Origin: a virus
DNA: 22,636 nt
Virus record (IMG/VR): IMGVR_UViG_3300035661_000347
Coordinates: 1 to 22,636 of that record
Reading direction: 5' to 3' (one strand)
The position numbers and the translations under genes were made by a program. Shown here one piece after another: positions 18,660 through 22,636 of this stretch. Numbering within the stretch: the stretch's first letter is position 1; each line of letters starts with the position of its first letter. The notes below the pieces were generated by a model, which ran no database searches, was not told the DNA's origin, and worked only from the letters and a program-made list of their open reading frames with translations.

Positions 18660-18956
18660 ATGGATTTCGATTCCCTAATTTCTCGCGTAATTTTTTCTCA
18701 AATTATCCCTTCAGTGGGTAACTCTTTAACTACTGTCTATATTATGTTAGACAATGGTTTCGAGTACTCACAAGTATTCCGTACACTTCATAAAGAAGAA
18801 GCTCCTTCAGATATTACTACAGCTTATAGTAATATGATGAAAGCTACTATCAATGACTTGTTGGATCAAATTAATGTAGGTGATAATTTGTTCGCAGAAG
18901 AGTTTATCAACTACGAACATGTATACCAAGGTCTGCAAATCCCAACTATGGGATAA
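18660..18956 (+). CDS. Small acidic protein at the end of the rightward block, unknown
   Basis: A 98-residue acidic protein with a ribosome binding site AAGGA at 18647-18651. The segment TTVYIMLDNGFEYSQ (about 24-38) resembles the strand-NGF turn of the gp49-like protein encoded at 17830-18099, so the two may be distant paralogs; this is a weak match. The rest is helical (about 50-70) with a Tyr/Glu-rich end. It is the last rightward gene: its final 11 bases overlap the end of the leftward giant gene, and no terminator lies between them. Confidence 0.7.
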   Translation: MDFDSLISRVIFSQIIPSVGNSLTTVYIMLDNGFEYSQVFRTLHKEEAPSDITTAYSNMMKATINDLLDQINVGDNLFAEEFINYEHVYQGLQIPTMG

Positions 18957-21900
18957 GCATATCTGTAGTTTGTTTAACTGTTTGATATAAGCCTGGAGTT
19001 GTAAAATGCTCCAGGTGATCCAGTGGATTTAAATGTATCATTTGAGCATAGTTCTTAAAGAAAATAGAACTTTCTGTAATGTCATCTAAATCCAATCCTG
19101 GGAATGTTTGTACAGCTAAGTCTAATGCTAGGCTTGCTGTACGCTTCTTAGCTTGTCTTGCAATAACTTTTTGAATACCTACAAAAAACTTTGTAAACAT
19201 CATAAAGCCCATATCATTAAGAAATGTTAATGACTTAGGATCTGGCAAATCATAGTTAATAAATGTATCTAATACTATCTTATTACGTGCTTCTTTGGAC
19301 ATACTCTTATCTTTACCTAGATGTTGCATTAATGCATATCTAGCGATCAAATCACTATACTGAGTAGCTTTATTTAGTAATTTAAACACAGGACTATTAC
19401 CTGTGAGCATTACGTTATTAAACACAGCTTCTCCGAAATCTGTAGCAGCTTTGCCAACAATTTCTTGAGCATTCTTTTTAATATAGTTACCTAGATCATC
19501 CATGTAACCATATTGAAGAGTAGATGCATCTTCAGCTACTGTCTGGTACATGCCAGCTTCTACTAACTCATATATAGGGTTAGCCTTAACTTGCTTCTCT
19601 AATACATTAGCTCTAGACTGCATTACCTGTATGCTATGAGGTTGTAATGTTGTAGAGTTAATCTTAGCTTTAATAGCATACAACTCTTGCATAGCCTTCT
19701 CATAAGCTCTGATGTGTGTAAATGCATCTGTGTAATACTTCTGTATATCTACAGGAGCTAGACCTTCTACTAATAAGATATTAGTATTAGAGATTGTGTT
19801 GTTAACTACTACTTTAGGTGACTTTATTACGATAAATGTCTTATCTGAAGCTACGATTTCTTGCCAAACAGTTTGAGCTGTAGACACCCATTTCTTAATT
19901 GGGAAATCAGGGAACTTCTCTTGAGCATAATTAACTAACCAAGTGTCTGCTAAAGAGATTTTTCTACCACCAAACAGTATGTTAATAGCTGCTTTAGGCA
20001 CATGAATACCGTTTGGTATAAGCTGTCTAGTAGCACTAGGTAACATACGATAGTATTCTAAGGTCTCGTTAGGAGACCCATCAGCATTCTTCTCTTCACC
20101 ATGTACTAACGTAAACTCATGCTTACGTGTAGGATTGTCTCTATAGATCTTCTGGAGTTCTTTTACTACTACTGGATTCAATTCCATAGTAGCTTCTTTA
20201 GAAGCATTTGTCATATACATACTTTGGATCAAGTTTGATGCATTATAGCTTTTACCTAAGTATTTAACCTGTTCTACATCATTCATCACAATAGCGTAAT
20301 CAACAATGTTACTATTAGCATCTCTAATAGGTACATATCTATGAGAAGCACCTTTAGCATCCTTAGCAAATAAACCAAGGGTATTTTGGTTCTTAGCTAA
20401 TTGTGTTTGCTTATAAGTTAACTCATCTATATACGCTCTAATTTTAGCTGCATCAAATCCTTGGTTTTGAATTAACAGATCTGATAACTTAGTACCTCTG
20501 CTATGGAAACTATCTACACCAAATACACCTGATGTTAAAGCATCATTACTATTGATACGTTTAGTATAGAACTCTTTATCTACACCTGAGATAGGATCTT
20601 GCATACGCTTACCAGTTGGTTCCCAACCCTGTTTACGTAATTCTAGAGATTTAGATACATCAGCTACTGTATACTCAATATGTTTAGCATACATCTGAGG
20701 ATAGTGGCCCTTAGTAAGAAGTGCGTTTGAATTCTTAAATAAAGACTTCTTAGACTGTTCAGCATAACTATTAAGCATTAGATGCATATTGGTAATACCG
20801 TTATGAGTATTACTTTTACTAAACTCTCTATCCCAAATAGCTTTATAACTTGTTTGAGTACTATCATCTAATCTAGAGTACGCTACTAGCGTAGCTAAAC
20901 TATCCATAGCTTTGTATATGCTAGCTCTATTCTCTGCAATAGATTTATTCTTACCAAAAGTTTTAATAGTAGTATTAATAGCTACATCAATATTTCTTGC
21001 CGAATTAGCTAATGGAGTCTTATTATCTACCATCAAATAACCAATACTCTTAGCTTGATTTATAAGAGCTGTACTATGTGCTGTATTGGGTACTAGGTGT
21101 TCAATAGTAGATTGTAGTGAATAAATCTTAGTCTTAAGACTTTGAGGTGAATCAATGAATTCTCTAATCTCTTTATGGGTGTAATACTTAGTTAAAGACT
21201 GCATATCTGTAGCAAAACTTGCTCTACCTACAACCTCTTTATCTGTTTCAGTTAAAGGGAATAACCAAGCATTATCAAATTCATTCATAGCTGTATCACC
21301 AAAGTGTTTACGAACTACTTCACGTTTAGCTTTAGCCATGCTATGTAATTTAATAATTGGCTCTAGTAATGGATGTTCATTACGTAAAGCTCTCGATAGA
21401 TGTCCTATTAAACCAATACCATTAACTGCTTCGTGCATCAAGAAACTATTAGATCTAGCTACATCTTCCCAGCTATTAATATAACTTGCTTGAGTATTGG
21501 CTTGTAGATATGAAGCATTAGTCATAGCCATTGCTGTTTTAATGTATGCAGCTCTATACATAGATTTCTGTGTAGCTGTAAGAGTATCTTTACTAGATGA
21601 ACTGATAGGTGTACTGGCTGATGTATTAGATACAAAATCTAAAAATCTATCTACATTAGCATCTTTAACTAGTTTACTAACCTTATTGTTTAAAGGTTCT
21701 AGCATCTTTTCATTTAAGATATTAATACCCGTATTCTTAAGAACAGCTTCTATACGATTTTCTTGTACAGCATTCTGTTGATTAATCATAGCAGTTGCAA
21801 TGCCATAGAGCTTTTCATAACCATTGGCACTATTATTCTTACTTAATACATTAACCAAACGATCCACAGCAGTTAGGATAGCCTTAACGATTCTACTAAA

Positions 21901-22636
21901 TATAGAATCACCTTTAGGTGTTAAAGACTCTGCAATGGCTGAGGTAGTTGTAGTAGTATCTGCCATATTCTTCAAAGCATTAACCATATTCTCATTGGTT
22001 AAACCATAGGCTAGAAACTCTAGTAACCCTGAATTGATTTTATTGCTACCTTTAACATCTGTAGAGTTAAAGATATAGTCCCAAGTTTCTCTAGCAGCTT
22101 TGATTTCTTCAGCTTTATCTGTTAGATATACTGGATTGCCTGATGCATCTTTATGCAAGAATATCTCGTAACCTTTACCATTTTTATTTAATGTCTTAGC
22201 AGCTAATGCATGAAAGTTACTTAACTCAGTCAGTAACTTAGAATCTTCTAATAACAATGGCGGTAATACACCATGAAGTAATTCATGTATGTGTGCTTCT
22301 CTTAATGACATTCCAGGTAAAAGTTTACTAGCAGTAGAAGCGTATAGCTTACTTACTTTAGTTGCATAGTTAAATTCACCACCATTCATGATTCCGTTGC
22401 TTCGCATAACTTCAACGATTACTTCACCTAATCTACCAAAGCCTTGGGTAATAAGTGAATTGTTAATGTTATTTAAGTGCTCTGCGTGTTCTGTAGAGAT
22501 AGATAAGTTATCTAGTGTACTGACTACTGCATATGTTTCATTTAACGTATCCTGAGTAACTCTTAGAGTTTCTATAGGCATACCAAATCCATCTGTATCA
22601 AATGCAGATGATTTACTTGTATCAGGCTTCGGCTTA
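18946..22636 (-). CDS. Virion-associated RNA polymerase, C-terminal region (N4 gp50-like), 5' end outside the window
   Basis: The leftward frame is open to the window edge: upstream of the first Met (at 22581) it reads on as a Lys/Pro/Asp/Ser linker, and no ribosome binding site is seen there, so about 1229 residues of a longer protein are visible. The place, opposite and convergent with the replication/gp49 block, matches the vRNAP gene of N4 (about 3500 residues), whose polymerase core lies in the middle; this piece would be the C-terminal domain that is packaged in the virion. Numbering from that Met, HELLH (99-103) with E188 in LLEFLAYG looks like a zincin site. The far C-terminus, containing INYDLPDPK and NDMGFMMFTKFF, is of the kind I recall in N4-like vRNAPs. 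No polymerase motifs fall in this part, so the identity rests on context and size. Confidence 0.72.
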   Translation of the reverse strand, partial: KPKPDTSKSSAFDTDGFGMPIETLRVTQDTLNETYAVVSTLDNLSISTEHAEHLNNINNSLITQGFGRLGEVIVEVMRSNGIMNGGEFNYATKVSKLYASTASKLLPGMSLREAHIHELLHGVLPPLLLEDSKLLTELSNFHALAAKTLNKNGKGYEIFLHKDASGNPVYLTDKAEEIKAARETWDYIFNSTDVKGSNKINSGLLEFLAYGLTNENMVNALKNMADTTTTTSAIAESLTPKGDSIFSRIVKAILTAVDRLVNVLSKNNSANGYEKLYGIATAMINQQNAVQENRIEAVLKNTGINILNEKMLEPLNNKVSKLVKDANVDRFLDFVSNTSASTPISSSSKDTLTATQKSMYRAAYIKTAMAMTNASYLQANTQASYINSWEDVARSNSFLMHEAVNGIGLIGHLSRALRNEHPLLEPIIKLHSMAKAKREVVRKHFGDTAMNEFDNAWLFPLTETDKEVVGRASFATDMQSLTKYYTHKEIREFIDSPQSLKTKIYSLQSTIEHLVPNTAHSTALINQAKSIGYLMVDNKTPLANSARNIDVAINTTIKTFGKNKSIAENRASIYKAMDSLATLVAYSRLDDSTQTSYKAIWDREFSKSNTHNGITNMHLMLNSYAEQSKKSLFKNSNALLTKGHYPQMYAKHIEYTVADVSKSLELRKQGWEPTGKRMQDPISGVDKEFYTKRINSNDALTSGVFGVDSFHSRGTKLSDLLIQNQGFDAAKIRAYIDELTYKQTQLAKNQNTLGLFAKDAKGASHRYVPIRDANSNIVDYAIVMNDVEQVKYLGKSYNASNLIQSMYMTNASKEATMELNPVVVKELQKIYRDNPTRKHEFTLVHGEEKNADGSPNETLEYYRMLPSATRQLIPNGIHVPKAAINILFGGRKISLADTWLVNYAQEKFPDFPIKKWVSTAQTVWQEIVASDKTFIVIKSPKVVVNNTISNTNILLVEGLAPVDIQKYYTDAFTHIRAYEKAMQELYAIKAKINSTTLQPHSIQVMQSRANVLEKQVKANPIYELVEAGMYQTVAEDASTLQYGYMDDLGNYIKKNAQEIVGKAATDFGEAVFNNVMLTGNSPVFKLLNKATQYSDLIARYALMQHLGKDKSMSKEARNKIVLDTFINYDLPDPKSLTFLNDMGFMMFTKFFVGIQKVIARQAKKRTASLALDLAVQTFPGLDLDDITESSIFFKNYAQMIHLNPLDHLEHFTTPGLYQTVKQTTDMLIP

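What the first reader, a model, noticed from the sequence alone, without database searches (positions are those of the whole stretch)
18946..22636. HExxH metallopeptidase-like motif in the virion RNA polymerase C-terminal region
HELLH with a downstream E in LLEFLAYG (85 residues later) has the look of a zincin active site within a protein that should be injected with the DNA. A protease domain in the injected polymerase could process the polyprotein or act on host proteins or the peptidoglycan layer during entry. I do not recall a described protease in N4 gp50.
Basis: partly seen in the sequence, partly recalled or inferred. Interest (0 to 1): 0.58.

Follow-up and report, generated by a model that had tools for sequence, protein, structure and literature searches.

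The report
Zincin protease domain in injected polymerase
The giant RNA polymerase that N4-like phages inject into bacteria carries a zinc-protease-like domain, as others have already reported; here it sits in a second position where coliphage N4 keeps only a catalytically dead copy, so the predicted active site has changed place between two sister domains.

Summary
HELLH (22287-22273, minus strand) and a downstream Glu (22020-22018) lie in the cut-off C-terminal 1229 aa of a Schitoviridae virion RNA polymerase. Both are fully conserved in the orthologous domain of 32 relatives that have it, and the segment folds as a zincin. The basic idea is in print: a zincin-like metallopeptidase in N4 gp50 was described in 2017, and a conserved HExxH in its C1 domain in 2025.

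What the papers I saw do not describe is that this is not the N4 C1 domain. It is orthologous to the first ~215 residues of N4 "C2", a dead paralogue of C1. The window model's best PDB match is N4 2375-2592 (Z 10.3); its profile hits N4 2423-2665, with FQMVT where HExxH should be. Of 129 non-redundant vRNAPs, 88 have only site 1 live, 35 only site 2, 3 both and 3 neither. Live sites keep all three metal ligands in 91/91 and 38/38; dead site 2 keeps none in 83/88. One Vibrio phage has a whole extra live domain as a clean 218-aa difference. Zinc binding, proteolysis and substrate are untested.

The parts
18946..22635 (-). C-terminal 1229 aa of a virion RNA polymerase (N4 gp50-like); the 5' end, with the RNA polymerase domain, lies beyond the contig
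   Evidence: ORF; phrog_2206 E 7.8e-131; tblastn to 401 phage records
21868..22569 (-). zincin-like domain, 'domain 2' (open-frame residues 23-256), live in this phage
   Evidence: profile match 1e-51 (live domain-2 profile, which includes the window), 5e-13 (dead domain-2 profile, which does not); AF2 model; best PDB match N4 2375-2592, Z 10.3
22273..22287 (-). HELLH motif, residues 99-103 from the ATG at 22581
   Evidence: invariant H99, E100, H103; in helix 93-105 of the model
22018..22020 (-). Glu188, predicted third metal ligand, in LLEFLAYG
   Evidence: invariant in 33 of 33 rows; in helix 184-195 of the model; 38 of 38 live site-2 domains
18982..21321 (-). rest of the C2 region, used as bait for relatives without regard to the motif
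   Evidence: profile A1 matches open-frame residues 439-1218

Best explanation
Anatomy (shown by computation): the HELLH segment is an intact zincin-type metallopeptidase domain of a Schitoviridae virion RNA polymerase. The family has two neighbouring positions for homologous zincin domains between the T7-like RNA polymerase domain and the helical C2 region. N4 and most sampled relatives keep the first one live (N4 C1) and carry a second one that has lost its metal ligands. The window's lineage keeps the second one live and usually has no first one. Mechanism (inferred): the domain is delivered with the polymerase into the cell, where the two His and the Glu hold a zinc ion, the motif Glu activates water, and a peptide bond is cut in a host or phage protein met at entry. 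I put cutting another protein at about 0.45, cutting the vRNAP itself after ejection (for instance to separate the polymerase from its inhibitory C-terminal domain) at about 0.25, a non-proteolytic metal enzyme at 0.15, and a structural metal site at 0.15. The stated confidence is for the anatomy and for a metal-dependent catalytic site, not for the substrate.
For: Invariant H99/E100/H103/E188. Zincin-like model. Best PDB match N4 2375-2592, Z 10.3, 184 residues, 4.0 A; next lethal factor Z 7.4 and PPEP-1 Z 5.4. The domain-1 model from Vibrio phage phi 1 instead matches N4 2124-2358 (Z 7.6), so the two positions are told apart in both directions. Profile of live domain 2 hits N4 twice: 2423-2665 (i-E 7.6e-14, HExxH against FQMVT) and, weakly, 2223-2326 (5.7 bits, HELVH against HELVH). 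hhalign of live domain 2 against live domain 1: 98.7%, E 3.3e-16, with the HExxH and EFxAxGLTN blocks in register. Live domain 2 scores higher with the dead-domain-2 profile than with the domain-1 profile in 37 of 38; neither profile was built from these rows. Ligands are kept or lost together: 91/91 and 38/38 complete at live sites; 83/88 with none and 5/88 with one at dead site 2. Where neither position is live, L107 has an HEVVH at residue 278, near the N-terminus.
Against: No metal, no activity and no substrate has been shown here, and I saw none in the papers read. Foldseek itself gave no PDB match with E <= 0.001. The lethal-factor and PPEP Z-scores (7.4, 5.4) are in a range the tool calls common for chance arrangements. 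No Pfam family matches the window domain above its cut-off. Alteromonas phage AD45-P1 (L019) has EEVVH instead of HExxH and no other HExxH in the frames scanned; its gene is annotated as a potential frameshift. Recombinant N4 vRNAP, with a live C1, was purified without evidence of degradation, against spontaneous self-cleavage. L152 scores better with the domain-1 profile.
Confidence: 0.8

Rival explanations
1. Self-processing: the zincin cuts the vRNAP in the head or after ejection, releasing the polymerase from the inhibitory C-terminal domain or separating domains (proposed in general form by Iyer et al. 2017).
For: The domain lies at the join of RNA polymerase and C-terminal domain (median 131 residues from the end of the polymerase match to site 2 in the window type). 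The CTD inhibits transcription in N4. The JA-1 paper notes a discrepancy between the predicted 335 kDa and the observed mass of vRNAP from virions, which its authors put down to the gel.
Against: N4 vRNAP is packaged unprocessed (PMC5512222) and recombinant N4 vRNAP shows no degradation. The live domain changes place (site 1, site 2, N-terminus), which does not suit one fixed cut.
Confidence: 0.25
2. A non-proteolytic HExxH metal enzyme, such as the alpha-ketoglutarate-dependent HExxH oxygenases that the N4 structure preprint's citation points to.
For: The N4 preprint names zincins and radical-SAM-linked HExxH proteins together. The HExxH domain of ChlB appears among the structural matches (Z 3.6; Z 2.3).
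Against: Z is well below lethal factor (7.4) and PPEP-1 (5.4) in the same list. Residues specific to that class were not tested.
Confidence: 0.15
3. The same domain as N4 C1, with the apparent second position produced by misalignment.
For: A single HExxH domain between polymerase and C2 would look alike by position in either case.
Against: Window model to N4 2375-2592 and phi 1 domain-1 model to N4 2124-2358; two separate hits in N4; 37 of 38 live domain 2 closer to the dead domain than to domain 1; 3 of 129 proteins have both.
Confidence: 0.04
4. A chance HExxH without function.
For: 3.6% of shuffled versions of this protein contain an HExxH.
Against: Invariance of all ligands across domains 15-26% identical to the window's; joint loss of the ligands at the other site.
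Confidence: 0.01

Closest known systems
Zincin-like MPTase of the N4 virion RNA polymerase (Iyer et al. 2017; N4 residues 2130-2448 in that paper; C1, 2124-2375, in PMC12633501)
   Same: Same protein family, homologous fold and motif order: E-x3-HExxH, then Glu in an EFxAxGLTN-like helix
   Different: N4's live motif is at 2228 in C1; the window's is in the domain matching N4 2375-2592, where N4 has FQMVT at 2456 and no Glu at the third-ligand position
M34-type gluzincins: lethal factor catalytic domain and PPEP-1/2/3
   Same: Best non-phage structural matches of both models (Z 7.4 and 5.4 for the window; 6.4 and about 5 for phi 1 domain 1)
   Different: About 12-15% identity over about 140-150 aligned residues in those rows; toxin or secreted-enzyme setting against an injected phage protein; substrate features not tested
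PhiM1 ejectosome protein (PDB 8vb2, chain A, 268-503)
   Same: Structural match of the phi 1 domain-1 model, Z 7.2
   Different: Ejection protein of another phage; whether it has a live motif was not looked at

Membership tests
Zincin-like MPTase of polyvalent proteins (as defined in PMC5512222) | HEXXH in the first of two C-terminal helices | tested here: met
   HELLH in helix 93-105 of the model; invariant
Zincin-like MPTase of polyvalent proteins (as defined in PMC5512222) | Glu in the second C-terminal helix as third ligand | tested here: met
   E188 in helix 184-195, invariant in 33 rows
Zincin-like MPTase of polyvalent proteins (as defined in PMC5512222) | N-terminal helix and three-stranded sheet before the motif | tested here: met
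   H30-51, E54-61, E66-71, E76-82 in the model
Zincin-like MPTase of polyvalent proteins (as defined in PMC5512222) | Fusion to an N4-like RNA polymerase | tested here: inconclusive
   The window is cut before the polymerase domain; 33 of 35 site-2 proteins have it upstream by profile, and the two without are the window and L152
Zincin-like MPTase of polyvalent proteins (as defined in PMC5512222) | Zinc binding and peptide cleavage | not testable with these tools
   No biochemistry here
M34 family (lethal factor, PPEP) | Shared catalytic-domain fold | tested here: inconclusive
   Z 7.4 and 5.4, in the range where the tool warns of common arrangements
M34 family (lethal factor, PPEP) | Conserved active-site Tyr ahead of the third-ligand Glu (recalled) | not tested
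   Not counted formally; no Tyr is among the invariant columns of A5
alpha-ketoglutarate HExxH oxygenase | Shared fold with the ChlB HExxH domain | tested here: inconclusive
   Z 3.6, 2.3

The most novel reading that the evidence does not exclude
Schitoviridae virion polymerases need one live injected zincin, but not at a fixed place: the catalytic site has moved between two tandem sister domains (and in L107 to the N-terminus), the superseded copy surviving as a dead scaffold inside N4 'C2'; whole live domains can be plugged in or lost between near-identical phages (phi 1 against JA-1). A fixed requirement with a free position points to a protease acting on other proteins during entry.
Probability: 0.45. 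Interest if true: 0.75.

Novelty: new variant of a known kind. Interest (0 to 1): 0.55.

Why it matters
[quoted passage not shown] Recognising the first ~215 residues of C2 as a dead zincin explains part of that fold. Near-total retention of one live site across deeply diverged phages makes the injected zincin a likely essential or host-facing activity, which a single-residue knock-out in N4 on laboratory E. coli could test. Vibrio phages phi 1 and JA-1 offer a natural pair differing by one whole zincin domain.

Tried and rejected
Single-protein search of viral contigs with the first 412 aa found no relative; replaced by alignments of the downstream C2 region, which also avoids choosing relatives by the motif. 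A 21-row alignment was too diverse to search with. The first large MAFFT run timed out, and a run with faulty domain starts that left out the window was replaced. Pfam gave nothing above cut-off for the protein, and only scattered hits for the single domains, such as SprT-like in 9 of 57 domain-1 rows and DUF6782 in 5 of 57. Foldseek ranking alone was uninformative; VIA-align on the same candidates was clear. A second tree method and an AU test were not run. Which of the two positions was live first could not be decided: the tree (FastTree, C2 region only) is unrooted and has long branches joined, including the window with L022. Host assignment of the window was not attempted, nor a scan of bacterial genomes.
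Full report
WHAT IS THERE. The window is a 22,636-base virus fragment. Its plus strand carries a replication and nucleotide module of the N4 type (thymidylate synthase, MazG-like, ribonucleotide reductase, DNA polymerase, exonuclease, primase, Sak4-like, SSB, dCMP deaminase, RusA-like). At the right end, on the minus strand, is the C-terminal 1229 aa of a virion RNA polymerase. tblastn finds 401 phage records with it, all under 60% identity, so the phage is far from the isolates in that collection.

IS IT MORE THAN CHANCE. The bare motif is not (3.6% of shuffles). Conservation is: G68, H99, E100, H103, E188 and F189 are the only invariant columns in 33 domains, the other 32 being 15-26% identical to the window's. 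To avoid choosing by the motif, relatives were gathered with the C2 region downstream of it (A2, A3, A4; the A3 and A4 scans kept the best 80 of 106 and of 187, so group sizes reflect sampling, not abundance), together with 20 named phages taken from tblastn hits. Of 232 sequences with a C2 match (L139 gave none; L001, the window's own copy, was set aside), 212 reach upstream far enough to show site 2 and 20 do not. Clustering at 65% left 129 and dropped 83.

TWO POSITIONS. In the 129-row alignment HExxH falls in two columns: 88 proteins have it only at site 1 (N4 type), 35 only at site 2 (window type), 3 at both (L018 Vibrio 1.238.A, L027 Vibrio phi 1, L148) and 3 at neither. Of these 3, L107 has HEVVH at residue 278, near the N-terminus; L232 is cut before site 1; L019 (Alteromonas AD45-P1) has EEVVH at site 2, in a gene annotated as a potential frameshift. 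Over all 212 ORFs, four lack HExxH: L232, L209, L155 and L019; L155 has it in the preceding ORF of a split gene, and L209 is cut upstream. So L019 is the one exception that I cannot explain by truncation or splitting, apart from its possible frameshift.

LIGANDS MOVE TOGETHER. At live site 1 all three predicted ligands are present in 91 of 91, at live site 2 in 38 of 38. At site 2 of the 88 N4-type proteins none of the three remains in 83 and one in 5. The surrounding signature survives: Glu four before the motif in 84/91, 35/38 and 65/88; Phe after the Glu position in 86/88 dead copies. In N4 (L161) the live motif is 1273 and the dead site 1045 residues from the end, which gives 2228 and 2456 in N4 numbering.

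THE TWO DOMAINS ARE SISTERS, AND THE WINDOW HAS THE SECOND. Profile comparison of live domain 2 (A5) with live domain 1 (A6) gives 98.7% and E 3.3e-16. The A5 profile hits N4 twice, at 2423-2665 and weakly at 2223-2326. The window model matches N4 2375-2592 (Z 10.3), the phi 1 domain-1 model N4 2124-2358 (Z 7.6; that model is weaker, pLDDT 73.6). Live domain 2 scores better with the dead-domain-2 profile than with the domain-1 profile in 37 of 38 (medians 81 and 28 bits); L152 is the exception. In the window type the end of the polymerase match lies a median 131 residues before site 2 (33 of 35 measured), against 353 in the N4 type (87 of 88): in 26 of 33 there is no room for domain 1, in 7 (over 200 residues) it is undecided. 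No domain-1-like hit lies there; L043 has one near its N-terminus with HELVH at 371.

A NATURAL DOMAIN DIFFERENCE. The vRNAPs of Vibrio phages phi 1 and JA-1 are 96.3% identical apart from one gap: phi 1 has 218 extra residues between polymerase and domain 2 that form a complete live domain (HELIH ... IAELVTYGLTN). In a near-identity search of this stretch, 9 records of 5 phages match; only phi 1 (2 records) covers it, while 12VC501, JSF3, VCO139 and JA-1 lack it. The closest other sequences are at most 34% identical. A gain in phi 1 is the simpler reading, but loss is not excluded. G+C of the insert is 0.317 against 0.335 in the flanks.

HOW MANY SWITCHES. On a FastTree tree of the C2 region the N4-type label needs 3 changes, site-2 liveness 2 and site-1 liveness 4. 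The reciprocal pattern therefore rests on few evolutionary events, and the counts of proteins are not independent. Retention of one live site along many long branches is the stronger signal. The window groups with L022 at 31% identity; the tool warns that long branches meet there.

WHAT IT PROBABLY DOES. Shown: fold prediction and conservation. Inferred: metal binding, peptide cleavage, action after injection. N4 vRNAP is packaged whole and recombinant protein is not degraded, which speaks against easy self-cleavage. The freedom of position speaks for a substrate in trans. The N4 authors place polymerase and CTD in the host cytoplasm and leave the role of the CTD open. Peptidoglycan is unlikely on that placement. 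The JA-1 virion paper reports a mass discrepancy of vRNAP, put down to the gel; the observed mass is only in a figure that I could not see, so self-processing in window-type phages stays open.

WHAT IS KNOWN. Iyer et al. [quoted passage not shown] The passages found for 'inactive', 'tandem', 'degenerate' and 'MPTase domains' do not mention a dead second copy; its figures and supplementary alignments were not seen. PMC8472413 repeats the domain for N4 and Cbunavirus (passages). The N4 preprint sees HExxH in C1 and no structural homology for C2 (section). Searches of the library turned up no further paper on the point (listings only, apart from passages read). PDB entries 11gp, 11go and 11fw belong to work that I did not find.

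VERDICT. A real zincin domain; the basic claim is already published. The second, switched position with a dead counterpart in N4 is, as far as these searches reach, new.

Noticed in passing
L107, ORF residue 278; L043, ORF residue 371; L010, ORF residue 241: HExxH motifs near the N-terminus of three vRNAPs (HEVVH, HELVH, HEAAH); those in L107 and L043 lie in domain-1-like profile hits, so the zincin can also sit before the polymerase domain.
   Followed up: partly
PDB 8vb2 chain A, 268-503: A PhiM1 ejectosome protein matches the phi 1 zincin-domain model (Z 7.2), hinting at zincin-like folds in ejection proteins of other podoviruses.
   Followed up: no
L027:6123-6776: A clean 654-base in-frame block present in Vibrio phage phi 1 and absent from four close relatives.
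   Followed up: partly
L155 (IMG/VR copy of a 71,629-base genome): The vRNAP gene is split into two ORFs within domain 1, from a frameshift or a sequencing error.
   Followed up: no
H71, PQ898399.1: A 248,734-base record, Enterobacter phage SonariX, carries an N4-type vRNAP match, an unexpected size for that family.
   Followed up: no
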